A program made the position numbers and the translations under genes. A stretch of 43,198 nucleotides of DNA from a virus, in the IMG/VR virus record IMGVR_UViG_3300022562_001465, positions 1 to 43,198 of that record; one strand, written 5' to 3'. Numbering within the stretch: the first letter of the stretch is position 1; the number at the start of each line of letters is the position of its first letter. The notes beneath the pieces were generated by a model. It worked only from the letters and a program-made list of their open reading frames with translations. It searched no databases and was not told the DNA's origin. Shown here piece after piece: positions 2,447 to 22,997 of the stretch.

Positions 2447-4069
2447 CTATTCCGCTGCCTCCTCTGCAATCAATAATTCATAAAGATTTTGATCAATGGT
2501 CTGAGCATGGTCAAGCGCCTGATCCACATCCTCATCCGTAATCTCAACCCCATCCTCATTATATAAAATCGCCATGACTAAACGTGCCAGCTGATCATCC
2601 TTTAGATTATCCTCATCCCCCTCACTTGGATGATCGGATTGATCATCCTGAGGGGCAGTAGATTCGGTTAAGGTATCCTGCTCAATCACGGGGATACTTA
2701 AAATCGTGCTGTCAATAATGGCGCGAATTTCCTCGCGGCTTAAGGTATCCGGGGGGAGCGACTGAACTGCATTAGCAAAGGTTTCTAAAACCTCAATATT
2801 GCGCTTTTGCATTAAATCATTAGGCCGATTCACGCTAATGGTGACACGCGGGTAAATTGCGCCTAACGTGGCGGCAATCTGATGCAAGATCGCGCCAATG
2901 CCGGTATCCGCCGCGTTCTCGGCTACTGTATCGGCCTGCGCTCCAAATCCAATCCCCCCCCGTGTCACAATGGATGATAACGGCTCGCTAAAGCATAGCG
3001 CGATCACGTCCTCAATATATTGGCGGCGTTCCTCAAATGATACCCCGTCGTCCTGTCTAAAGTTGACCGCCACATAATTCCCATCAGGGTTATCAGTGGT
3101 TAAAATGGTGGTTCCCTTATCGATGAGATAACCGCGTGATCGATTTTCCTCACGGTTAGTTTCAATTAAATCTTTAAGTTGCGCCGCCGATTCTTGAATC
3201 CCCGTAAACAATATGACCCCATCAGTCATGGCGTTTAGTTTCTTTTCAATCCGGGCATCAATCACCAAAATATCCTCGGCCAATACCCCAAGCGCCATCC
3301 ACATGGCCGACGTACCAATGCCGTAATAACTTGTCTCGCCGGGGGTCATGGGCAATATTTGGGTTTTATGGAGTAATATCCATGATGCCTGTCCATCAAC
3401 TAAGGTATGATACCAATATGGAAATTCCTGCACGCCGGTGGGTTCTAAATAGTAAATATTAGGCATGTAGGGCACGGGGGTTCCGTATTTAACCCAATCC
3501 ACATCCAGATAATATTTATGGGATGTGTTCTCAATCGGGATCAGATTCAACCCCATCGATTCCCACATATCCGTATCATAATGAATGGGGACAGTCGCAA
3601 TCGGCACGCCCCGATTATAAACGCGCAGACCGCGTACCATCAGCTTAACGGCCTGAGTAATGCCCAATGGCGAATCGTTAAACATGGCAATCGCGTCCCG
3701 CGCTTTGCCAACGGGGGATTTACGGCCTGATAATTCAAAGGTAGCCGTTGCTGACTGATCCTGCTGTCGCCTGATCACGCCGGATACTTGCGAGTTTACA
3801 ATCGGAGCAATGCCCACGTTAGCCACCCGGCCATCCACCATCGATTCACAGGCCAAATCATCAAGACCGCTGCCCTTTTCCGGCCACCGCACCACCATCG
3901 TTTCCCGATCCCGATCCAAAGCTACCCCGGCGCTAAAAAAGTTGGCGGTAGGGGCGGCTAAATAATCCACTGATGAGGTCGTCACACGATTCGTTCTTTG
4001 GTACGTGCGAGGGATGATGATCCCTGTTTCCTGATCGGTTATAAAGCCGTTCTCATTGATAATTGGCAC
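2447..4069 (-). CDS. Portal protein
   Basis: At 540 residues the protein has typical portal length. It contains a long central helical region (ILVIDARIEKKLNAMTDG onward) followed by DDGVSFEERRQYIEDVIALC and a Gly-rich GGIGFGAQADT stretch, as in portals that form the dodecameric DNA channel at the head vertex. The last 100 residues are strongly acidic (DDQSDHPSEGDEDNLKDD). It lies immediately downstream of the large terminase gene with a 40-base gap and overlaps the start of the head morphogenesis gene. In tailed phages the portal is the terminase docking site, so gene order strongly supports the call. Confidence 0.75.
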   Translation of the reverse strand: MPIINENGFITDQETGIIIPRTYQRTNRVTTSSVDYLAAPTANFFSAGVALDRDRETMVVRWPEKGSGLDDLACESMVDGRVANVGIAPIVNSQVSGVIRRQQDQSATATFELSGRKSPVGKARDAIAMFNDSPLGITQAVKLMVRGLRVYNRGVPIATVPIHYDTDMWESMGLNLIPIENTSHKYYLDVDWVKYGTPVPYMPNIYYLEPTGVQEFPYWYHTLVDGQASWILLHKTQILPMTPGETSYYGIGTSAMWMALGVLAEDILVIDARIEKKLNAMTDGVILFTGIQESAAQLKDLIETNREENRSRGYLIDKGTTILTTDNPDGNYVAVNFRQDDGVSFEERRQYIEDVIALCFSEPLSSIVTRGGIGFGAQADTVAENAADTGIGAILHQIAATLGAIYPRVTISVNRPNDLMQKRNIEVLETFANAVQSLPPDTLSREEIRAIIDSTILSIPVIEQDTLTESTAPQDDQSDHPSEGDEDNLKDDQLARLVMAILYNEDGVEITDEDVDQALDHAQTIDQNLYELLIAEEAAE

Positions 4070-4109: not shown

Positions 4110-6563
4110 CTAAGCCATACTAGATCGCTTGGGCTTATATAGTCCGTAACGCAGGGCGTCGAAACAGTTTTTAACTAAAACCCCATTTGCATAATATTCA
4201 TGCTGATCCTGAATGTGAACCGTGTAAACCCTTTCGCTTTCCCCATCTTGCAATTGCAGCACATGTTTTGGAGCAGTATTGGGTTTTATCATATCGGCTA
4301 GAGGTAAATGATTGATGGCATATTGGACATTCTTTTTGAATATCATCCAATCCATTATCACGTCGCCATTTAGATTTGCATTTATTACTGCAAAATCGTG
4401 CTTTTTCAGGTGTTTTGGAAGTAAAACTCGCATGGCATTGTTCGCAAATACATTCAATTGCTTTTCGATTTCCAATGCTAGTTTTGGCATGATCACTATG
4501 CCATTGATGGCCTGCTTTGGAGCGATGCCAGGCGATAGCAAGCGGGCGAATTTTATCCATATTTTGCTGTCGTGCCTCCAGGTGTTTCGGGTCTTTCCCA
4601 TGTAAGCGAGAATGTCCTGATCGTGACATGATTTGAAGATTGGTAATATCATTATTGAGAGAATTTCCATCAATATGATGGATACAATATCCTTTAGGGA
4701 TTTCTCCATGTACTGATTTCCAGATTTCTTGATGTAAAGCGCCAACTCCTCTTTTGCGATGATTTCCGCCCGGCCAATAATAGACCCGATGAGATCGTTT
4801 TGCAGATTCTGGATAACGTCTGAATTTAATCCCATTAAAAATGATAGTTTCTGATTTAGACATTGTGATATTTCCCTATCTATTGTAGTAGATATTATAT
4901 CACCATATCGCAAAGTATCAAGATACCGCCATTTATTACTGATCCACAACGGATGATTTGGAGTAGCATTAAGACTGGAATGATCAGAGAAAAGAGCTTT
5001 AACGGTTGGCCTATTTCTTAATCGGCTCCATATATCTTTAACAGGCTTATACCCTGTTCTGGTCAGCACAAAATCCCCTATGCGTAATCGTTCAATGGGA
5101 ATATTTCCAAAATAGGTGGTAATCAATGTGCCTGCAACAAAACAATCATCCCCCCCATCCCCACCCTCATCAATATCTACCTTTAAGGGAGCCTCTAAAT
5201 TATTGGGATCACGTTGGATATAAGGCAAACTTTCAATTAACTGACGGCAGTTTTTGGTAATCCATAAGCGCTGCGGTATATCCCGATCCGGGTTGCCAAG
5301 CAACTGCATAATATATTGTGCTGACAAAATACGGCTACCGGGGCTAGTGTCGGCTCGATACAGGGTAATATTGGCATTTTGTTGATATTGCCGTGCAATC
5401 GATAATTTATTCTGTCCCGTCTCGTTAAAGGCATCATTCCCAACCACAAAGGGGTGCACCCGCTTTTCCTCAATTTTATATAGCTCCAGGATAGCCCGAT
5501 AATCCGCTGCGATCTCGATTGGGTAATGCCGGCGGTGCGCTAATTCATGAAATGTATATTTATTGCCGTCCTGATCCTGAGCATGGAGCAGAATCACGTT
5601 AGGGTGATGGAATCCGTAATCCATCGACGCCCAGATTGTCCAGCCCGGATCAATGGTTGTAAAAGGATCAATGACATGCCGCGTATAGTTCCAATTCTCA
5701 AAATAAGCGCCGGCAACTATATCCCAATCGCCATGTAGATAGGCGCGTTTTTCTGCGCCTACCAAATCCTCTAACTGTTTAATATAGCCATGATAAACAA
5801 AAACATTATCCTGCACCGTCGCAAAAATAAATTTACGACCTAACGCTAAAGCCTCGCCCAAGCGCTCCGGATCGATAAAGCGCTTTTTATACCACGCATG
5901 ACCTACTCCCATCGGGTTGGTTGAATTGTAAATCCGGGGCCGCCACCCCTTACTTGACCGCGCCGCCAGGCGAATATGCTTATAGGCGTGGAGGGATAGC
6001 GTCGTGGTTTCCTCAACGATAATCACGTCGTATTCAATCCCTAAATAGCTCATGGCCTCATTCTCGGTCTTAAAGTGGCCGATAATGATACGGGAGCCGT
6101 TGGGGAACTTGATCTGATCACGGGTATAAATATGCGGTACACGGGATAAGGTTTTTAGTACCATATCCTGCATTTGCTCCGCCGCTCTTTTGCCGATCTT
6201 GCGTAAATACAAAACTTTAAGGCCGGGAAAGCGCTGGCAATCATCAATGGCCGCCTGTACAAATAAGGCTATCGATTTTCCGCCGCCTCTAGCCCCGCCA
6301 AACCCAATCTCATCCGGCTGATTATCAAAATCCGCCTGTCGCGCCCAATATAAGAATTCCAATTGTTTAGGTTGGACAATGATCCCGGCATCCGTAAAGC
6401 GTTGGATATGGCTATCCTGTACCCCTACCGCTCGCCAAGTGGCCTGATATTCTGACCATCCCCCCGGATAAACCTGCGCTACCGGTAGATCGTCAGTAGG
6501 GGTATCACTGAGTAAATCAATAAAGGTTTGAACCCCATCATTCCATGAGCTTTGCAATGTCAT
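4110..6563 (-). CDS. terL: Terminase large subunit, interrupted by an intein
   Basis: This is the ATPase-nuclease that cuts and pumps phage DNA into the prohead. Walker A is GGARGGGKS (residues 89-97) and Walker B is YDVIIVEE (about 178-185). The nuclease acidic residues are D315 in ASMDYGF, D377 in VVGNDAF, and the GGDGGDD/FDALRY motif near the C terminus. A 326-residue intein (residues 474-799) splits that last motif between GGDGGDD and CFDALRYGL, so the enzyme should be inactive as a nuclease until splicing. Without the intein the protein has about 491 residues, normal for TerL. The gene overlaps the upstream small-terminase gene by 26 bases. Confidence 0.93.
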   Translation of the reverse strand: MTLQSSWNDGVQTFIDLLSDTPTDDLPVAQVYPGGWSEYQATWRAVGVQDSHIQRFTDAGIIVQPKQLEFLYWARQADFDNQPDEIGFGGARGGGKSIALFVQAAIDDCQRFPGLKVLYLRKIGKRAAEQMQDMVLKTLSRVPHIYTRDQIKFPNGSRIIIGHFKTENEAMSYLGIEYDVIIVEETTTLSLHAYKHIRLAARSSKGWRPRIYNSTNPMGVGHAWYKKRFIDPERLGEALALGRKFIFATVQDNVFVYHGYIKQLEDLVGAEKRAYLHGDWDIVAGAYFENWNYTRHVIDPFTTIDPGWTIWASMDYGFHHPNVILLHAQDQDGNKYTFHELAHRRHYPIEIAADYRAILELYKIEEKRVHPFVVGNDAFNETGQNKLSIARQYQQNANITLYRADTSPGSRILSAQYIMQLLGNPDRDIPQRLWITKNCRQLIESLPYIQRDPNNLEAPLKVDIDEGGDGGDDCFVAGTLITTYFGNIPIERLRIGDFVLTRTGYKPVKDIWSRLRNRPTVKALFSDHSSLNATPNHPLWISNKWRYLDTLRYGDIISTTIDREISQCLNQKLSFLMGLNSDVIQNLQNDLIGSIIGRAEIIAKEELALYIKKSGNQYMEKSLKDIVSIILMEILSIMILPIFKSCHDQDILAYMGKTRNTWRHDSKIWIKFARLLSPGIAPKQAINGIVIMPKLALEIEKQLNVFANNAMRVLLPKHLKKHDFAVINANLNGDVIMDWMIFKKNVQYAINHLPLADMIKPNTAPKHVLQLQDGESERVYTVHIQDQHEYYANGVLVKNCFDALRYGLYKPKRSSMA
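4167..5144 (-). other. Intein within the terminase large subunit
   Basis: The insert starts at Cys474 (CFVAGTLITTYFGNIP, block A) and has TPNH at 534-537 (block B). It ends in a block F/G region, VYTVHIQDQHEYYANGVLVKN, followed by Cys of the C-extein. First Cys, final Asn and +1 Cys are all present, so splicing looks competent. The Hint blocks sit at the two ends. The middle, about residues 565-780, has no recognisable endonuclease in the terminase frame, because that DNA encodes an HNH protein in another frame. Insertion into the most conserved nuclease motif is typical of inteins, which favour sites that are hard to delete cleanly. Confidence 0.92.
4198..4863 (-). CDS. HNH homing endonuclease nested out of frame inside the intein
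   Basis: This 221-residue protein is encoded on the same strand as the terminase but in a different frame. The HNH core is YCIHHIDGNSLNNDITNLQI (about 59-78) plus SRSGHSRLH, giving His62/63, Asn and His84/88 positions. The N-terminal YYWPGGNHRKRG and WKSVHGEIPKGY stretches resemble those of phage HNH endonucleases. Two C-terminal zinc ribbons follow: CICEQC...CSNKC and CPICHQ...CSKTC. An AGGGA ribosome site lies about nine bases before the ATG, so it is probably translated on its own. Its last codons overlap intein block F. It probably drives spread of the intein locus. Confidence 0.88.
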   Translation of the reverse strand: MSKSETIIFNGIKFRRYPESAKRSHRVYYWPGGNHRKRGVGALHQEIWKSVHGEIPKGYCIHHIDGNSLNNDITNLQIMSRSGHSRLHGKDPKHLEARQQNMDKIRPLAIAWHRSKAGHQWHSDHAKTSIGNRKAIECICEQCHASFTSKTPEKARFCSNKCKSKWRRDNGLDDIQKECPICHQSFTSSRYDKTQYCSKTCAAIARWGKRKGLHGSHSGSA

Positions 6564-11008: not shown

Positions 11009-11950
11009 ATGGAATTTTGGCATAATCAGCGCATTCTGATTACAGGCGGCACAGGGTTTTTAGGTTCTGCTGTTACCCGCCAATTAAAGCAATATGATAA
11101 TAGTACCGACGTTTATAGCGTTGGTAAGCATCATGGGAACCTGACCAATCCTGAAATGATCCGCCGCCACTTAAAAATCTTTAATCCCACTATCGTGATC
11201 CATTTGGCGGCTGTGGTGGGCGGTATTGGCGCAAACAGGGATCGGCCTGCCGAGTTTTTTTATCAGAATGCCTTAATGGGGATTCAACTTATCCATGAAT
11301 GCTATGTTGCCAAAATCCCCAAAATGGTGGTGGTTGGAACCATCTGCGCCTATCCCAAGTTTACGCCTGTCCCCTTTACCGAGACTGAGCTATGGAATGG
11401 CTACCCAGAGGAAACTAACGCCGCTTATGGATTAGCTAAAAAAATGCTGCTTGTCCAAGCACAAGCCTACCGCCAGCAATATGGCTTTAATACTATCTAT
11501 CTGCTGCCAACTAATCTTTATGGCCCCGGTGATGAATTTGATCCCGCCTCAAGCCATGTGATCCCGGCGCTCATCCGTAAATGCGTGCAGGCTAAACAGG
11601 CCGCCGATCCCTTTATGACCGTGTGGGGGGATGGGACACCTACCCGCGAGTTCCTGTATGTGGATGATGCTGCCGAGGGAATTTTGCTTGCTACCGAACA
11701 TTACAACAAACCCGATCCCGTTAATTTAGGCACCGGACAGGAAACAAGCATTGCTGCCATTATGACCATGATTGCCGATAAGATAGGTTATAAGGGGGAG
11801 GTTATTTATGATACTACCAAGCCTAACGGCCAACCGCGCCGCTGCCTGAATACGGATCGTGCTAAAAATGAATTTGGCTTTGTTGCTAAGACCCCCCTAC
11901 AAGTTGGCCTCCAAAAAACCATTGATTGGTATCTCAAACATAGTTTGTAA
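11009..11950 (+). CDS. NAD(P)-dependent epimerase/reductase, GDP-L-fucose synthase-like
   Basis: This 313-residue short-chain dehydrogenase has GGTGFLGS (residues 13-20) for NAD(P) binding and the catalytic pair Tyr140/Lys144 in YGLAK. AAVVGGIGANRDRPAEF and TNLYGPGDEFDPASSHVIPA are hallmarks of GDP-fucose synthase, which makes GDP-L-fucose from GDP-4-keto-6-deoxymannose. It is the only convincing plus-strand protein gene here, set among minus-strand glycosyltransferases for which it could supply the sugar donor. No GDP-mannose dehydratase is in the window, so the precursor would come from the host or from elsewhere in the phage. AGGA precedes the ATG by ten bases. Confidence 0.88.
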   Translation: MEFWHNQRILITGGTGFLGSAVTRQLKQYDNSTDVYSVGKHHGNLTNPEMIRRHLKIFNPTIVIHLAAVVGGIGANRDRPAEFFYQNALMGIQLIHECYVAKIPKMVVVGTICAYPKFTPVPFTETELWNGYPEETNAAYGLAKKMLLVQAQAYRQQYGFNTIYLLPTNLYGPGDEFDPASSHVIPALIRKCVQAKQAADPFMTVWGDGTPTREFLYVDDAAEGILLATEHYNKPDPVNLGTGQETSIAAIMTMIADKIGYKGEVIYDTTKPNGQPRRCLNTDRAKNEFGFVAKTPLQVGLQKTIDWYLKHSL

Positions 11951-11966
11951 AGGAACCTTTACAAAC
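11943..11966. promoter_or_regulatory. Palindromic operator, copy 2
   Basis: The arms GTTTGTAAAGG and CCTTTACAAAC surround a 2-base centre, making this the longest copy (11-base arms). It overlaps the last codons of the epimerase gene and covers the -35 region of the promoter for the tRNA-like RNA. Confidence 0.75.
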
Positions 11967-11985
11967 ACAAAATCAATGCTATCAT
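11958..11985 (+). promoter_or_regulatory. Promoter of the tRNA-like RNA
   Basis: TTTACA (11958-11963) and TATCAT (11980-11985) are 16 bases apart. The predicted start is close to the first base of the folded RNA at 11993. The -35 box is the right arm of the palindromic operator. Confidence 0.5.
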
Positions 11986-11992
11986 TTAATTC

Positions 11993-12067
11993 GTTGGGGT
12001 TGCAGATTGCCCACGAGTGTTAGGGATCATATCCCGAAGATAGGTTTGAATCCTATCTGCCCCAACA
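11993..12067 (+). tRNA. tRNA-like RNA with CAU anticodon loop
   Basis: The ends GTTGGGG and CCCCAAC form a perfect 7-bp acceptor stem around 74 bases, the usual tRNA length. An arm with loop TTTGAAT closed by AGATAGG/CCTATCT resembles the T arm, though its stem is 7 rather than 5 bp and the loop has T in place of the usual C. TAGGG-ATCATAT-CCCGA gives a 7-base anticodon loop with CAU, preceded by U33 and followed by A37, much like initiator tRNA. The D arm is poor and lacks the usual GG. No CCA is encoded. It is either a degenerate phage tRNA (Met or lysidine-Ile type) or a tRNA-derived RNA. Confidence 0.45.
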
Positions 12068-12079
12068 ACCCCCCCTTAT

Positions 12080-12664
12080 TTAATACCAACTCTGCTGCAA
12101 GATTTCCCGATATTGAAACGGGACGCTTACGATCATATCGTGATCAACCATTACAAAGCGTTTGCCTGTACCTATCTTGTTGATAAAGGTACTGATAGGC
12201 GGCCAGTCTTTAGGATCGTGAGGATGTGGGGGAGGTGCTTCAAATAGACGCGCATCATCCACAATAACCATATGATGATCAGATAGATTATGGTTATTTA
12301 TGGCTTCTAATTCCCCTAACAATGGACATTCTCCCTGGGCATCAACCGGCGAATCGTTTATCCAGTGCGCGTCAAGCCACAAGATCGCAGGATCATTGAC
12401 CTCATTCAAAACATGCTTTAATTGATCCCGCGAATCGCCAAAAATAAAATGGATGCGCTTACGGTTAATCACCTCATTGGGGATACTTGCTAACGTTTTC
12501 TCAAAGCGTGGCCGATACGCCTCAATCGTGTAAACTTTAGCAAAATGTTGTTCTGCCCATAGCGCCGTTTGCGCTTTGTATGTGCCACTCTCAATCAGGA
12601 CTTGAATATTGGCTGCTTTCTGTAAATTTAGTGCTAGTTGTTTCGGAAAATTATGCCCCATCAA
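12080..12664 (-). CDS. Class I methyltransferase-like protein
   Basis: This 194-residue protein has VLIESGTYKAQTALWAEQHF, a motif I variant of SAM-dependent methyltransferases, then VYTIEAYRPRFEKTL (acidic residue for the SAM ribose) and ILWLDAHWIND, which corresponds to the strand that often carries the catalytic or metal-binding acid. VIVDDARLFEAPPPHPHDP is also acidic and could bind metal. It is translationally coupled to the glycosyltransferase before it (ATGA-type overlap). Methylation of a sugar or other small group is likely, and the substrate is unknown. Confidence 0.65.
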   Translation of the reverse strand: MMGHNFPKQLALNLQKAANIQVLIESGTYKAQTALWAEQHFAKVYTIEAYRPRFEKTLASIPNEVINRKRIHFIFGDSRDQLKHVLNEVNDPAILWLDAHWINDSPVDAQGECPLLGELEAINNHNLSDHHMVIVDDARLFEAPPPHPHDPKDWPPISTFINKIGTGKRFVMVDHDMIVSVPFQYREILQQSWY

Positions 12665-13353
12665 AGTAATCCTTTCTCTTTCAATTCTTTAATCATCCAT
12701 TGTGGGAATTTCTTAAAATCAAATTGATCAGGTTTATTCCCCATCCCCCCAATCGCGTTAATGTAGGTTAATGGCGGACGCATAAACCCTAAAATATGCC
12801 CATAAAAGCGCCCCTCACGCCGATCTGCCATTAAACGCTGTGTACCACGCTTTTCAAACTCCCACGCATTTTCCGCCGGGTTTAGATAGCGGCGCATAAA
12901 ATGTTTATCCCAAATCGCGGCTTGCAGGGATGTTTGGAATAGGGAGTTATCATCGGATTGGATCATGGGATGGCCGCCCACATCCCCAAAAAAACGATGC
13001 GCTACCTTTGCCCTATCATCAGTCAGATCGATCTTGACGGTTTTATGATAATAATTAAAAAGCGTCTTGATCGCGCTAACCTTGACCGGTTCTGCAATAA
13101 AATAATCCTCCAGCAGGAGGATAAAGCGATTATCCGGGATCAATTCCAAAAATCGGATCGCGCCGGATGACCAGGTAAAATCCTTTTGATTCCCCAAACT
13201 TAAAAAACTAAAGTTGGTAGGCAAATCCGCCGGCGCTTGCTCATAGCCCACTACCATAACCGGTTGATCTTTATCCCAAAACTTATTAAACAAATACGCG
13301 AATGGCCGCAAACAATGAATATATCGATCAGATGTTAAAACATAAACCATCAT
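12661..13353 (-). CDS. Glycosyltransferase-like protein (GT-A type)
   Basis: The 230-residue protein opens with the strand MMVYVLTSDRYIHCLRPFAY and has FILLLEDYFIAEP near residues 77-89, where the Glu-Asp pair sits in the place of a GT-A DxD metal site. The C-terminal part WEFEKRGTQRLMAD and the aromatic GFMRPPLTYINAIGGMG resemble acceptor-site regions of small glycosyltransferases. It overlaps the neighbouring genes at both ends by four bases, so it belongs to one operon with the methyltransferases and glycosyltransferases. The exact family is uncertain. Confidence 0.6.
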   Translation of the reverse strand: MMVYVLTSDRYIHCLRPFAYLFNKFWDKDQPVMVVGYEQAPADLPTNFSFLSLGNQKDFTWSSGAIRFLELIPDNRFILLLEDYFIAEPVKVSAIKTLFNYYHKTVKIDLTDDRAKVAHRFFGDVGGHPMIQSDDNSLFQTSLQAAIWDKHFMRRYLNPAENAWEFEKRGTQRLMADRREGRFYGHILGFMRPPLTYINAIGGMGNKPDQFDFKKFPQWMIKELKEKGLL

Positions 13354-14240
13354 AGTTTTAGCTCCTCATAAATCATTTTACGTAATTCCCGCGCCCGTAC
13401 CGCCCAGGTGTGTTTCTGTGTAACCAACTCATAGCCCTGTTGAGCGATAAAGCGCCAGCGATCCTGATCCAATAAATAGGTGAGTTTAGCCTCCATTGTC
13501 CCCATATCGCATAACACATAATGCGCGTCAAGCATTAAGCCGTCCTCAATCACTGTGGGGAATGGCAGCGATAGCAGGCAAGATTGACAGGCTAAAGCGT
13601 CAAAAACGCGGTGTGGCCTATTCTGCGCGGTTCTAGGGGCATTGACGACCACTTTTGAGGCTGATAATTGCGCGGCATAATCCGATAAGGGAACCACCCC
13701 CGATTTATAACCCCACTGATAATAACTGCATATGTCATGCAAGTGCTGCCGGATGCGCTGCCGATCCGGGCTGCCGCCGCAATGAAAGTTAACCGTTAAG
13801 GTTTTAGCCGCCGGCTTAAAAAGGTGATCATTAACGGCATATAACAGGCGGCGCGTGTTGGCATTGGGAACCCTGAATCGATTTAGATCATCATGATCCA
13901 CTAACACCAGATCGGCGCGTTTGGCCTGCTCAAAACGGGGTTTGTAATGGTAGTCATCCGAAAGAGTTGAATCAATGCTGTAAAAAATAGCCGGGATAGC
14001 CCGTCCCTTATAAACACACCAATTACTATCCTCATGGAAAATCAAATCAAACCCCTGCCGCTTTAACTGATAGGTATCAATCACCGAATGTTTAGCCGGC
14101 GATAAATGCTCCCAGGTAAATTCCGGGGTGGCGTAAGAAAAAATTCCCATGTTCCGCCCCTCGCGCTCCTTAGTGGATGGGCTATTTTTAACCAAGAAGG
14201 CAACATGTAAAGGTTTCACAAGATCACCTGTGATGCCCAA
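13350..14240 (-). CDS. Glycosyltransferase, GT-B / group 1-like
   Basis: This 296-residue protein has a GT-B layout. The N-terminal half has LHVAFLVKNSPS and DLIFHEDSNWCVYK, and the C-terminal nucleotide-sugar half has KVVVNAPRTAQNRPHRVFDALACQSC followed by VIEDGLML, a pattern of group 1 and CgeB-like enzymes in which a conserved Arg/Phe-Glu-Ala region binds the donor. The Glu of the usual FEA motif is Asp here (FDALAC). It ends with a helix ARELRKMIYEELKL. It overlaps the membrane protein gene before it by 25 bases. The likely role is to add a sugar to a virion or host surface glycan. Confidence 0.72.
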   Translation of the reverse strand: MGITGDLVKPLHVAFLVKNSPSTKEREGRNMGIFSYATPEFTWEHLSPAKHSVIDTYQLKRQGFDLIFHEDSNWCVYKGRAIPAIFYSIDSTLSDDYHYKPRFEQAKRADLVLVDHDDLNRFRVPNANTRRLLYAVNDHLFKPAAKTLTVNFHCGGSPDRQRIRQHLHDICSYYQWGYKSGVVPLSDYAAQLSASKVVVNAPRTAQNRPHRVFDALACQSCLLSLPFPTVIEDGLMLDAHYVLCDMGTMEAKLTYLLDQDRWRFIAQQGYELVTQKHTWAVRARELRKMIYEELKL

Positions 14241-14611
14241 TAATGTTTATGTTTTTTACGCGCTATTTTAGTGCTATACATCAGCCTAGCCGATTGCAAA
14301 CAGGAATGACCGAACCAAGTCAAATCATATCGATCCTGTTTGACAATATCATAGTGCGTTAACCTTTCTAATTCACCCCACTTGGCAAACGGGGGTTTTC
14401 TTTCGTGTTTATCAATATATTGAACAATCAGACATTCCCGAAAGGATAAACAATAATCATCAACATGTTCAATGGTATAGGAGGTGTGATGGGGAATTCT
14501 CTTGTGATAAAATATAGATTCATCCACAAATGACGCCAACAACATGAATAAAAATATCCCGATAATTCCTAGCACCAACCCGGCTATGATAACAATTCCT
14601 AATTCGATCAT
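14216..14611 (-). CDS. Small membrane-anchored protein of unknown function
   Basis: Residues 4-28 (starting LGIVIIAGLVLGIIGIFLFM) form one clear transmembrane helix at the N terminus. The remaining 100 residues are soluble and basic, with SFRECLIVQYIDKHERKPPF and a Lys/Arg/His-rich end. It lies in frame order between a bifunctional methyltransferase and a glycosyltransferase and overlaps both, so it may anchor or regulate the sugar-modifying enzymes, but nothing in its sequence shows that directly. Confidence 0.6.
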   Translation of the reverse strand: MIELGIVIIAGLVLGIIGIFLFMLLASFVDESIFYHKRIPHHTSYTIEHVDDYCLSFRECLIVQYIDKHERKPPFAKWGELERLTHYDIVKQDRYDLTWFGHSCLQSARLMYSTKIARKKHKHYWASQVIL

Positions 14612-15807
14612 GGTTTACTCCAATAAATGGTTATTTTATCTAATGGTAAATAAGTGGGGATTTGATCCCCCCAAAATTCCTGTATCGCTGCCCGCACCCC
14701 CTCCCAATAATGGAATCCAAACGCCACAATCATGCCGCCCGATACTACAAAGGGGTACAGGTGTTCTAAGCATAGCTTGGTAGGCTCATAAAATGAGCAA
14801 TCCAAGTGCAACAGGGCAATCGGCTGCCCATTATAGGACGGGATTGTATCTACAAATTGGCCGCTGTGGATAATCGGATCATCTAAACCCAAATCATTAA
14901 ATAACTGCTGTACCTGATAAAAATCACCCACACCCCATCCCGGTCTTTCAAATTTCATGGCCGCCCGTCCCCCATCAATGGGTAAAGGGGGATTATAGCC
15001 CTTAAAGCTATCAAATAGCTGTACCATCCGCTGCGATCCTAATGCCATGACCGCCGCCGATCCGCCATGTTTAACCCCGCATTCTACCGCGATCCCTTTG
15101 GGTAAATGGGAGGCAACCCCATATAATCCCTCTAAATAGGCTTGGCTGCAACTTGAATAAAAACTAGCATGAACCACCTGATTAGGATCGGGAATTGATG
15201 GGGGCATATGCCTGAATCCCACCATCCCGACATTGCCTTTATCAATCAGGATATATTCGGGCTCACGGCCTAGCAAATACTTGAGATCATTGACCACCTG
15301 ATAGACGGTAGGACATTCCCGATACGTCCCCGCCGGGCTGTAATCATGGAATACGATTACCCCATTCGGTGCAAGATAACTAAACCAGGCGAGATCACGC
15401 TGTATCCAATCATGATCGCCGTCCACAAAGATTAAATCAAAAGTTTGATCATTGTTGTGGATATAATCCCACGAGAACGCCTCGATTACCTGTACATGCT
15501 TATAGGCACTTAAGTTTTTACGAGCTTGCTTAACCTCCTGATGGTCAGGATTCAACGTAATCATGGTGGCTTGGGGAGCAGCCTCAGCCATGATGGAGGC
15601 GCTAAAGCCTACCGATGTCCCAATCTCTAAAATAGCCGCCGGCTTTTCTGTTTTGACAATCCCATATAAAAACGCGGCCTGTCCTAAATCGAGCGCCCGT
15701 TTGCTTTGATATTTTTTAACATGGCCTAAAATGCCGGTGATTTCAGGATATTGCGCCGCGATCTTTTGAATAGTTTGTGATTGATTTACGCCTTTAAACT
15801 GCATCAT
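14608..15807 (-). CDS. Two-domain methyltransferase (Methyltransf_24 plus TylF-like)
   Basis: The first 200 residues repeat the 10355-10966 enzyme, with ILEIGTSVGFSASIMAEAAP, DLIFVDGDHDWIQRDLAWF and VIVFHDYSPAGTY. The second half is TylF-like: AVECGVKHGGSAAVMALGS as SAM site, FDSFKGYNPPLP, then LHLDCSFYEPTKLCLEHLYP and GGMIVAFGFHYWEGVRAAI. TylF enzymes normally have a DD(Y/W)G metal site after GGxIIx, but here it reads AFGFHYW, so the second site may be inactive or use another metal ligand. The family O-methylates sugars. The gene is coupled to the glycosyltransferase before it. Confidence 0.78.
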   Translation of the reverse strand: MMQFKGVNQSQTIQKIAAQYPEITGILGHVKKYQSKRALDLGQAAFLYGIVKTEKPAAILEIGTSVGFSASIMAEAAPQATMITLNPDHQEVKQARKNLSAYKHVQVIEAFSWDYIHNNDQTFDLIFVDGDHDWIQRDLAWFSYLAPNGVIVFHDYSPAGTYRECPTVYQVVNDLKYLLGREPEYILIDKGNVGMVGFRHMPPSIPDPNQVVHASFYSSCSQAYLEGLYGVASHLPKGIAVECGVKHGGSAAVMALGSQRMVQLFDSFKGYNPPLPIDGGRAAMKFERPGWGVGDFYQVQQLFNDLGLDDPIIHSGQFVDTIPSYNGQPIALLHLDCSFYEPTKLCLEHLYPFVVSGGMIVAFGFHYWEGVRAAIQEFWGDQIPTYLPLDKITIYWSKP

Positions 15808-17261
15808 TAGTCGCCTTTGTTCACATAGTCCCAGGCACGCGGATCATCTAAGCGATGGGGAATAAGTTTACCACGCGACCCCCACCGCCGGGCCTTTGTC
15901 GCCCAATGGAGAATCCCTGCCGTTTCTTTAGGGTCAAAATAATGTGGAACTGAATTGAATTCATGTCCAAGCACAAACGTTTTTAAGGGATAGCGCCACA
16001 GCGCCCGCAGAAGCGCCGCCTGATCGCGCCGCGCCCACTTGTCATTCCATTCGCTGATCCAACAGTCAAAAAACTTTTTGGTTTGAGCATTGCGCCGAAA
16101 AGCAAACACGCCGCCATTAAAGGACATCAACTGATCATCCCCTAACAATTGGAACGTTTGTTTGATTTCTGCGCCATTATCAGGCCGCCGCATCTTTTGA
16201 ATAGTTGCCATGTAATCTTTAGTGATGACAAATTCCCACCCATCCTGCAAAATCTTAAATAAAAAGGTCATGTCCGCCGAGACAATCTCGGTGTCCGCAT
16301 CCAAATACAAAATATACTGCCATTCCTTTGGTGCTAGGTTATTGACCTGCAACTTAGCAAAACGTCCCCCTACATCAATATCCGGCTGATTGATAAAAAT
16401 GTCCTCGCCCGCATTCATCGGTTCCACCCCCGCAAACGCGACGGGAATAGCGGGGATATATTTTTTACAGGATTTAATCAGCCGATCCGCGCAAATCCGT
16501 GCCGGACGACCATAGGCCACACAGTAGATACCGGATCGCCCCTCCCACGACGGTAAGGGATCGCGTACCTTAATCAAGGTTGATGGCGTGACCAATTGCT
16601 GATGATCAGCTAACCACGATTCATCCGTATAATCCGCCGTGATTGCTCGCAAATGATCGCGTTGAATGGGGGTTTTGTCATCTAAAGCCGTCCGCACCGC
16701 CGCATACAGGCTCGGATAGCTGCCATTATCAAAACGGTAAATCCCCGCCATATCGGGTAAATCGTCCAACATCCCTACCCCTTTAGGGATAATGATTGGC
16801 ACACCACAGCTTAACGCCTCTAGGGGTGGCATGGGAATCCCCTCAATCCGTGACGCGCAAATAAATAAATCCAATGCTTGGAAAAAGGTATGCAAAGATC
16901 GCCAGGGATAATGGCGCGTGCTTAAGTGCGGCCAACCGCGCCCGCTTGCCCGCCATTCTAAAGGTAACTTGCTCAACACCAACTGCGCGATTAAATCCTC
17001 ACCCTTGCGCTTATCGTTATACACATAGCCGGATACCCCCACAATATGCTTTTGCAGGGGACGGTTAGGGATTGTAAAGCGCTCCCGTTCCACCGGTGGC
17101 CGCATCAGGCGCGACCCTTCGGGTAAATCGGCTAAATAGCGCCGCGCACTCGTAGTACAAATATCGACTGCCGCTGCCACCCCATCCCACTTTTTCATTT
17201 TGCCGGCATTGGTGGTATCCCGATGAGTAAACCAGGCTGCCGTTTTCCCGATGTAAATCAT
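15807..17261 (-). CDS. Bifunctional glycosyltransferase: GT4-like domain fused to a GT-A (GT8-like) domain
   Basis: Residues 1 to about 235 match the C-terminal half of GT4 enzymes: HIVGVSGYVYNDKRKGEDL, and DLFICASRIEGIPMPPLEAL with the E-x7-E pair Glu140/Glu148, then SCGVPIIIPKG. The usual N-terminal Rossmann half is short or missing. From about 245 a GT-A domain begins (GIYCVAYGRPARICADRLIK) with YLDADTE as the metal-binding DAD and FNGGVFAFRRNAQTKKFFDC. That second domain is closely similar to the stand-alone enzyme at 17264-17884. The fusion could add two sugars in sequence. Reading frames around 17.26 kb give no sign of a frameshift joining the two genes. Confidence 0.8.
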   Translation of the reverse strand: MIYIGKTAAWFTHRDTTNAGKMKKWDGVAAAVDICTTSARRYLADLPEGSRLMRPPVERERFTIPNRPLQKHIVGVSGYVYNDKRKGEDLIAQLVLSKLPLEWRASGRGWPHLSTRHYPWRSLHTFFQALDLFICASRIEGIPMPPLEALSCGVPIIIPKGVGMLDDLPDMAGIYRFDNGSYPSLYAAVRTALDDKTPIQRDHLRAITADYTDESWLADHQQLVTPSTLIKVRDPLPSWEGRSGIYCVAYGRPARICADRLIKSCKKYIPAIPVAFAGVEPMNAGEDIFINQPDIDVGGRFAKLQVNNLAPKEWQYILYLDADTEIVSADMTFLFKILQDGWEFVITKDYMATIQKMRRPDNGAEIKQTFQLLGDDQLMSFNGGVFAFRRNAQTKKFFDCWISEWNDKWARRDQAALLRALWRYPLKTFVLGHEFNSVPHYFDPKETAGILHWATKARRWGSRGKLIPHRLDDPRAWDYVNKGD

Positions 17262-21568: not shown

Positions 21569-21680
21569 TTGTTAAGCATTCAATCTCGATCTATAATACC
21601 CCTTAGCTAGTGTATAGCTGTGCAGCATAACGTAAGTCGATAGACTAAGCGTGCTGCAAAAGATCAGATTAATGATCAAG
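21569..21680 (+). ncRNA. Hairpin RNA element A, overlapping the 3' end of tnpB
   Basis: A plus-strand promoter TTGTTA (21569-21574)-17 bases-TATAAT (21592-21597) is followed by a TGTATAGCTGTGCA hairpin. A long stem then pairs GCAGC with GCTGC around AGTC-gata-GACT, and a GATCA...TGATC hairpin ends it. The 3' end covers the last codons of tnpB in antisense. If instead it is read on the tnpB strand, it occupies the place where guide (omega) RNAs of TnpB elements are encoded. G-U pairs in the first hairpin favour the plus strand. Confidence 0.55.
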
Positions 21681-22991
21681 CAACCCCCGATTTAAGATAT
21701 TGATCGCCGCATTATGATCCCGATCCATTGATAACCCGCATTCAGGACAGGCGATCCAGCGATCCGAAAGTCGCAAATCCTCAAAAACATAACCGCATTT
21801 TGAACATGTTTTGCTAGTATAATGTGGGGGGATAAAAACAATCTTGCTGCCTGTTTCCTGTGCTTTGACCTGCACGCGTTCCATAAAATACCCCCACCCT
21901 GCATCAAGAATACTTTTGCTTAAGTGCTTATTTCTGACCATATTAGCAATTTGTAGGTTTTCAAAAACAATCACATCATAATCCTTACACCAATGATACG
22001 CCAGACGATCAAAAAAGTCCTCGCGCTGGCGGGTGATCTTTAGGTGTAATTTAGCGATCTGTTTTTTATTGCGCTCATAGTTCATCCCACCTTGTGTTTT
22101 ACGGTCTAACCCATGCTGCAAGATACGGAGGCGACGTTGTGATTCCTGATACCATTTTGGATTATCAATAATCTTACCATCACTCGTGGTCATTAAATGA
22201 TGGATACCGCAATCGACTCCGATAGCGCGATCAGTTGGTGGCAAGGGTTCCGATTTCTCGATCTCACAGGTCAGGCTTATGTACCATCCATCAGCCTTAC
22301 GAATCACAGATGAAGTTTTAATAGTTCCCTCGTAAGGACGATGCCATTTAATTTTGATTGTGCCGTCAATACCGAAAATATACAGGCGATGATTGACCAG
22401 GCGTATACCGCCACCCTCCCATTGTGTAACGCCAAAACTGCTATGAAACTGATGTTGACGGTAGCCAGGTAAACCAGCCTTCTTTTCAGCTTTCTTTTTC
22501 TTGAAAAATGCCTGATAGGATTCGTCTAAGTCCATTGCAGCGCGGCGCAACATTGCCACTGATACACAACGAGCAGCAGGGATCGATTTTCGATAGGCCG
22601 CAATCTGTTTATATTGATCAAACTTACTGACTTTTTCAGGTAGATCGCAGTTTGCAAAAATTTGAACAAGGGTAGCTACTTCAGGACTTTTTCCCGCTTC
22701 CTCATAGGCTTTATCATATAAAGGTTTGCGCTCATCTTTGGGATGTTTTTTAATTTCAGCAACGGTTTCTTTAGGTAGTCTAATTTTAAGGAAAGTCGCC
22801 GCTTCTGAGATAGTACCGCCATTTGCAAGTGTTTCTTTAACCTTGCGCGATTGGTAGACTAAAAGCCGTTCTTCAAGACACATGTTATACCAGGCGCGGG
22901 TAACGTCAAGGTGGCCTTGTAACTGTAATTCCTGCACTTTTGTTGGATAAATCCGATATTGAAAAGTCTTGATCGCTTTATTTTCTTCCAT
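21669..22991 (-). CDS. tnpB: TnpB / Cas12f-like RNA-guided nuclease (IS605 OrfB family)
   Basis: TnpB proteins are RNA-guided DNA endonucleases encoded by IS200/IS605-type elements and ancestral to Cas12. With the start at MEENKAIK this protein has 440 residues. In numbering from the upstream ATG (442 residues), the RuvC residues are Asp262 in GVDCGIHH, Glu346 in VFENLQI and Asp427 in DRDHNAAIN. The zinc ribbon is C398-x2-C401 and C417-x2-C420. All catalytic positions are intact. Residues about 55-130 hold a longer, Lys/Glu-rich insertion than usual. No TnpA transposase is in the window. The gene has its own promoter and is bracketed by hairpin elements A and B. Confidence 0.92.
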   Translation of the reverse strand: MEENKAIKTFQYRIYPTKVQELQLQGHLDVTRAWYNMCLEERLLVYQSRKVKETLANGGTISEAATFLKIRLPKETVAEIKKHPKDERKPLYDKAYEEAGKSPEVATLVQIFANCDLPEKVSKFDQYKQIAAYRKSIPAARCVSVAMLRRAAMDLDESYQAFFKKKKAEKKAGLPGYRQHQFHSSFGVTQWEGGGIRLVNHRLYIFGIDGTIKIKWHRPYEGTIKTSSVIRKADGWYISLTCEIEKSEPLPPTDRAIGVDCGIHHLMTTSDGKIIDNPKWYQESQRRLRILQHGLDRKTQGGMNYERNKKQIAKLHLKITRQREDFFDRLAYHWCKDYDVIVFENLQIANMVRNKHLSKSILDAGWGYFMERVQVKAQETGSKIVFIPPHYTSKTCSKCGYVFEDLRLSDRWIACPECGLSMDRDHNAAINILNRGLLDH

Positions 22992-22997
22992 GAACAT

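What the first reader, a model, noticed from the sequence alone, without database searches (positions are those of the whole stretch)
4167..5144. HNH endonuclease gene nested out of frame inside a terminase intein
The intein has intact splicing ends (Cys474, TPNH, Asn799, Cys+1) in the terminase frame, while 222 codons in another frame of the same strand encode a full HNH protein with two zinc ribbons and its own ribosome site. The terminase frame stays open through all of that DNA without encoding an endonuclease. Intein endonucleases are normally in frame and fused. Here a free-standing endonuclease seems to have invaded a mini-intein, and both frames are kept. The HNH 3' end overlaps intein block F, so those bases are under double constraint.
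Basis: seen in the sequence. Interest (0 to 1): 0.82.

Follow-up and report, generated by a model that had tools for sequence, protein, structure and literature searches.

The report
Hidden homing-endonuclease gene inside terminase intein
A phage DNA-packaging gene carries a self-removing protein insert (an intein) whose DNA, read one step out of register, also encodes a complete separate DNA-cutting enzyme, and about 138 distinct phage and prophage DNA stretches share this two-in-one layout.

Summary
Window 5144-4167(-) is an intein in terL with intact splicing residues (Cys474, TPNH, Asn799, Cys+1). Window 4863-4198(-) is a 221-codon HNH endonuclease gene with two zinc ribbons in another frame of the same strand. 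In this sequence alone, the open intein frame has P of about 0.004-0.01 under synonymous recoding. It is decisive by recurrence: about 138 distinct viral and prophage loci have the same arrangement at the same terL nuclease motif, always with the intein in HNH frame +1 (one exception, in +2), even at 30% G+C. The HNH frame evolves as an ordinary gene (pN/pS 0.23-0.33). The intein frame across it is only kept stop-free (pN/pS about 1-1.5) and is predicted disordered between two confident Hint halves. The HNH fills the usual endonuclease slot of inteins but has its own start and ribosome site. Relatives supply an empty terL, a mini-intein without HNH, split inteins with HNH between the halves, and HNH genes beside intact terL. 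Best reading: a composite homing element, a cis-splicing intein plus an overlapping, separately translated homing endonuclease. Homing and splicing are inferred, not measured. Closest published precedent: the out-of-frame HNH 'ShiLan domain', without intein. One cited preprint could not be read.

The parts
4110..6563 (-). terL, large terminase subunit ORF with intein, 817 aa
   Evidence: Terminase_3 9e-9, Terminase_6N 9e-8
5145..6563 (-). N-extein of TerL (473 aa), ends ..GGDD
4167..5144 (-). intein, Cys474-Asn799, 326 aa
   Evidence: Hint fold, closest solved structure gp41-1 intein
4881..5144 (-). N-terminal Hint half of the intein (blocks A-B, TPNH)
   Evidence: residues 1-88, pLDDT about 81-96 per block
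4275..4880 (-). intein-frame linker read through the HNH gene; open but low confidence, not conserved beyond the shadow of the HNH
   Evidence: mostly pLDDT 37-54, pN/pS about 1-1.5 in relatives
4167..4274 (-). C-terminal Hint half of the intein (blocks F-G, Asn799)
   Evidence: residues 291-326, pLDDT 91-95
4873..4877 (-). Shine-Dalgarno-like AGGGA before the HNH start codon
   Evidence: family-wide enrichment 50% vs 9-14% of control ATGs
4198..4863 (-). HNH endonuclease gene, 221 aa, intein frame = HNH frame +1
   Evidence: HNH_3 1.5e-14; AlphaFold mean pLDDT 94.8
4600..4737 (-). HNH catalytic motif (HNH residues 43-88)
4378..4446 (-). zinc ribbon 1, C140xxC143..C158xxxC162
   Evidence: invariant columns
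4261..4329 (-). zinc ribbon 2, C179xxC182..C197xxxC201
   Evidence: invariant columns
4198..4244 (-). overlap of HNH tail with intein block F: intein frame conserved, HNH frame not
4110..4166 (-). C-extein CFDALRYGLYKPKRSSMA: end of the TerL nuclease motif DD(C)xDALRY
   Evidence: empty allele GGDDAADALRYG in L156

Best explanation
A composite mobile element. The terL frame makes a cis-splicing Hint-fold intein that removes itself from the nuclease active-site motif of TerL. The same DNA, one base out of frame and with its own ribosome site, makes a separate HNH homing endonuclease with two zinc ribbons. The endonuclease would cut intein-less terL near this conserved motif, so that intein and endonuclease gene are copied in together by recombination, while splicing spares TerL. 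The intein frame across the HNH gene is under selection only to contain no stop, and its product there is a disordered loop. Shown: both open frames, recurrence, selection patterns, predicted folds, empty and HNH-free alleles. Inferred: splicing, separate translation, cleavage, homing.
For: About 138 distinct nested loci share one architecture and phase. Stops in the intein frame: 0 per 200 codons in nested loci vs 5.6 in the free/unassigned class. HNH pN/pS 0.23-0.33, similar to free-standing relatives; intein-frame pN/pS about 1-1.5, similar to the unread frame of free-standing relatives; same codon-position profile in both. Met codons before an A-starting codon, which force a stop in the intein frame, fall from 1.36 to 0.26 per gene. 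HNH start lies at a median of 266 nt after the intein Cys codon, with SD >=4 nt in 50% vs 9-14% of control ATGs, Fisher 5e-10. AlphaFold: Hint halves about 81-96 with a linker of 37-54; HNH 94.8. Element similarity can far exceed host similarity, e.g. L061/L093 HNH 0.57, splicing domain 0.50, TerL 0.04. Empty allele L156. HNH-free mini-intein in Mic1. Close HNH relatives beside intact terL.
Against: No expression, splicing or cleavage data. The window's own SD is weak. Almost no decayed HNH copies were seen (one internal stop, L082), which is unusual for a pure homing cycle and may mean that the HNH has another role; HK97-type HNH proteins act with terminase at cos (noted in PMC10448857). No relative closer than 49% (HNH) or 52% (TerL) was found, so no recent transfer of this exact element is shown.
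Confidence: 0.8

Rival explanations
1. The nested HNH is chiefly a packaging accessory (like the HNH proteins that act with terminase at cos) that settled inside the intein, and homing is secondary or lost.
For: Free-standing relatives sit beside terL; HNH frames are intact in nearly all nested loci; PMC10448857 notes that HK97 HNH acts with terminase in vitro.
Against: Element similarity far exceeds host TerL similarity in several pairs and insertion points differ by codons; related terminases lack it; it always sits in the intein's endonuclease slot.
Confidence: 0.13
2. The open intein frame across the HNH is chance and the intein is a wreck; only the HNH matters.
For: P is only 0.004-0.01 in the window by itself; intein-frame protein in the overlap shows no purifying selection.
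Against: About 138 loci with zero stops; splice residues and Hint halves conserved; NTA and Met codons depleted in nested HNH genes.
Confidence: 0.02
3. The insertion is a group I or II intron carrying an HNH ORF and the open frame is incidental.
For: The only solved relative of the HNH, I-HmuI, is intron-encoded.
Against: No intron family in Rfam even at permissive threshold; full intein blocks in the host frame; the frame is open in all nested relatives.
Confidence: 0.02

Closest known systems
[quoted passage not shown]
   Same: HNH gene with flanking zinc fingers inserted in a phage gene, host frame kept open, HNH in another frame of the same strand, patchy distribution
   Different: No intein or intron is detectable, the host protein is predicted to keep the insert, no ribosome site; here a Hint-fold intein surrounds the HNH and would remove the insert
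Bifunctional inteins with fused endonuclease (e.g. PI-SceI; terL inteins of mycobacteriophages, PMC5050341)
   Same: Endonuclease placed between the N- and C-terminal splicing blocks; terL host; homing logic
   Different: Endonuclease is out of frame and separately initiated, not fused; insertion in the nuclease motif rather than the ATPase domain that PMC5050341 reports for mycobacteriophage terL inteins
Fractured genes with split inteins and a free-standing endonuclease gene between the halves (Dassa et al. 2009, from general knowledge)
   Same: Separate endonuclease gene between IntN and IntC; several relatives here are exactly this in terL (e.g. L008, L056, L075, L106)
   Different: In the window the intein is contiguous and the endonuclease overlaps it; the family is HNH
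HNH homing endonuclease I-HmuI (PDB 1u3e)
   Same: Only solved structure matched by sequence profile, E 8.5e-4
   Different: Intron-encoded; the fold comparison is not significant (E 0.16); two zinc ribbons follow the HNH domain here
gp41-1 and NrdJ-1 split inteins
   Same: Among the closest solved intein relatives by profile (3.3e-18, 1e-13) and, for gp41-1, best by fold (1.8e-6)
   Different: Those are split in trans; this intein is contiguous across an overlapping gene

Membership tests
Class 1 Hint-fold intein | Nucleophile at position 1, block B TxxH, C-terminal Asn, nucleophile at +1, in frame with host | tested here: met
   Cys474, TPNH, Asn799, Cys800; Hint halves with pLDDT about 81-96
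Class 1 Hint-fold intein | Self-splicing | not testable with these tools
   needs expression
Bifunctional (endonuclease-containing) intein | Endonuclease domain fused in frame between blocks B and F | tested here: not met
   endonuclease lies in another frame; none of the strong family members with an intact intein frame is fused in frame
HNH homing endonuclease | HNH motif with conserved catalytic residues | tested here: met
   HNH_3 1.5e-14; conserved columns
HNH homing endonuclease | Site-specific cleavage of the vacant allele | not testable with these tools
   a vacant allele exists (L156) but cleavage was not measured
ShiLan-type out-of-frame HNH insertion | HNH out of frame in an open host frame | tested here: met
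ShiLan-type out-of-frame HNH insertion | No splicing element | tested here: not met
   intein blocks and Hint fold present
Fractured gene with split intein | Host gene in two ORFs, each with half an intein | tested here: not met
   one continuous 817-aa ORF; met in relatives such as L056 and L075
Group I/II intron | Intron RNA structure | tested here: not met
   only a sub-threshold RyhB match in Rfam

The most novel reading that the evidence does not exclude
Encoding the endonuclease as an overlapping, separately translated gene rather than a fused domain is a standing and repeatedly evolved form of mobile intein in tailed-phage terminases. Together with free-standing HNH genes beside terL and split inteins with HNH between the halves, it records how inteins acquire endonucleases, with split inteins serving as viable intermediates.
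Probability: 0.55. Interest if true: 0.82.

Novelty: new variant of a known kind. Interest (0 to 1): 0.72.

Why it matters
How splicing elements and endonucleases come together is an old question. This family offers most of the states at one gene site: empty, mini-intein, free-standing HNH beside terL, HNH between split intein halves, and HNH nested out of frame. It also gives a large natural set of same-strand overlapping genes in which one frame is under ordinary protein selection and the other only has to stay open, with the cost visible in the HNH protein (methionine avoidance). In practice the nested genes are missed: records for Highwayman, TJE1 and LS06-2018-MD07 annotate only terL there, and in the fractured relative CL2 the downstream terL tail after the HNH is not annotated.

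Tried and rejected
(1) First intein query by a single sequence found no relatives in viral contigs: the intein is too divergent; alignments were needed. (2) I first labelled six nested loci 'HNH broken'; inspection showed that the HMM domain ran past the natural stop in all but L082, so HNH decay is not claimed. (3) 'Nested N-only' loci proved to be complete inteins, most of a second subtype. (4) Group I/II intron: no Rfam match. (5) Single origin of nesting: an AU test rejects one clade (p 3.6e-5 with all rows; p 0.027 with ambiguous and long rows dropped and a simpler model), so moderate support only. (6) Phase explained by unavoidable stops: no, frame +2 could always be made stop-free by synonymous change; but frame +1 starts with far fewer stops (about 5.6 vs 19 per 200 codons in the free/unassigned class), the likely reason for the phase bias. 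(8) Preprint 10.1101/2025.01.02.630785 and Gorbalenya 1998 could not be read.

Full report
Observation. The terL ORF 6563..4110(-) holds an intein from Cys474 (5144) to Asn799 (4167) with TPNH and Cys800, and the HNH ORF 4863..4198(-) lies in another frame of the same strand. Pfam sees Hint_2/Intein_splicing only in the terL frame and HNH_3 only in the other. PHROGs families of terminases and unknown proteins match the intein frame even across the overlap, the first hint that the arrangement recurs.

Is it chance? For the window alone, synonymous recoding of the HNH leaves the intein frame open in 0.4-1% of trials, so one sequence is not proof. tblastn of the HNH against phage genomes put several top hits inside genes annotated as terminase. 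A profile of 11 HNH relatives was then used to scan viral contigs and bacterial/archaeal genomes. Of the loci found, 66 (the window included) had intein N and C blocks both in frame +1 of the HNH with no stop between; six more were set aside as HNH-broken but proved intact except L082; five further loci, most with a second intein subtype, are also nested in +1. A second scan chosen by intein similarity gave 78 of 78 with the HNH inside, in +1. After joining near-copies (90% over 800 nt) 138 loci remain. Only L069 is nested in the other phase. In the free/unassigned class of the same family the +1 frame has 5.6 stops per 200 codons, and for the 17 such loci tested the count is about what codon shuffling predicts. 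Caveat: both scans were capped (best 80) and ranked by similarity to this family, so the proportion is not a census.

Selection. In nested pairs the HNH frame has pN/pS 0.23-0.33, in the range of free-standing or fractured relatives (0.17-0.35); the intein frame over the same bases has about 0.96-1.5, like the unread frame of those relatives (1.0-1.28). Substitutions by codon position are indistinguishable between nested and free-standing genes. So the intein frame is not a selected protein there; it must merely lack stops. That demand is visible: NTA codons 1.42% vs 3.18%, and Met followed by an A-starting codon 0.26 vs 1.36 per gene. Across the window the conserved frame changes hands: intein from 5144 to about 4905, HNH from about 4874 to 4245, intein again from 4244. 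The HNH tail that overlaps block F is unconserved and its last residues are predicted disordered.

Structure. With 34 intein sequences the model gives a Hint fold from residues 1-88 and 291-326 (pLDDT about 81-96 per block) and a low-confidence linker (37-54, one block at 63); best solved matches by fold are the gp41-1 intein and class 3 DnaB inteins, by profile gp41-1 leads and NrdJ-1 is close. The HNH model has mean pLDDT 94.8; by profile it matches I-HmuI, by fold nothing significantly.

Position and expression. The HNH starts at a median of 266 nt after the intein Cys codon and stops mostly 31-70 nt before the intein end, the usual endonuclease slot between blocks B and F. The unoptimised nearest ATG has an SD match of 4 nt or more in 50% of loci, against 9% of internal HNH-frame ATGs and 14% of ATGs in other frames (Fisher 5e-10). 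The window's own SD (AGGGA) is modest. Independent translation from the terL message is therefore inferred.

Alleles and evolution. The nested inteins examined sit in the TerL nuclease motif D-H-x-x-D-A-L-R-Y, at four offsets within a few codons (a 21, b 40, c 10, d 1); Pfam finds terminase domains in many of the exteins and no rival host family. An intein-free terL at 52% identity reads GGDDAADALRYG. Microcystis phage Mic1 has a 146-aa mini-intein without HNH at offset b. About twenty loci are fractured: TerL-IntN stops soon after block B, then the HNH gene, then an IntC-TerL tail ORF, as in Lactobacillus phage CL2 (L008), L056, L075, L106; Brochothrix phage BL3 (L016) has this layout with only a zinc-ribbon remnant of the HNH. 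Others have the HNH beside an intact terL. Elements can be alike in unrelated terminases (L061/L093: HNH 0.57, splicing 0.50, TerL 0.04 of self score) and unlike in related ones (L066/L071: TerL 0.52, HNH 0.31), which fits horizontal movement of intein and HNH. A single nested clade is rejected, and nesting occurs in two intein subtypes and, once, another phase, so more than one origin is likely. I suggest, as inference, that an HNH landing in a split-tolerant intein is viable at once as a fractured gene, and becomes contiguous where few stops need removal, which favours frame +1.

Known work. The ShiLan domain (PMC11855218) is an out-of-frame HNH insertion without intein and with no detectable ribosome site. 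Mycobacteriophage terL inteins (PMC5050341) lie in the ATPase domain, and two tested ones with an identifiable endonuclease domain cut inteinless terL. No paper in the searched library was found to describe an out-of-frame HNH inside an intein, but a cited preprint on non-canonical actinophage intein architecture was not available. I therefore call it a new variant of a known kind.

Noticed in passing
L069:2631-3623: Single nested case in the other phase: intein contiguous in frame +2 of the HNH (no stops there, 10 in +1).
   Followed up: partly
L008, L056, L075, L106, L110, L114, L115: Fractured terL: TerL-IntN ORF, HNH gene, then IntC-TerL tail ORF; in the annotated record of CL2 (L008) the tail is missing, so terL appears to lack its last nuclease motif.
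   Followed up: partly
window 21669..22997 (-): 442-aa IS605 OrfB/TnpB-like protein with Cas12f1-like TNB domain in this phage.
   Followed up: no
window 11009..17261: Sugar-modification genes: an epimerase (the only ORF of 110 aa or more on the + strand), glycosyltransferases, TylF-like methyltransferase.
   Followed up: no
L224:1492-2040 and 2773-3345: Two HNH copies of this family in one locus.
   Followed up: no
L018 (Mic1) terL: A second intein earlier in the same terminase besides the HNH-free mini-intein.
   Followed up: no
L030, L112: HNH genes without a recognised intein whose +1 frame is nevertheless stop-free; perhaps escaped from nested copies.
   Followed up: no
L102 (Thermoplasmatales MAG chromosome): Nested intein-HNH in a terL on an archaeal MAG contig, suggesting an archaeal provirus or a binning error.
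   Followed up: no
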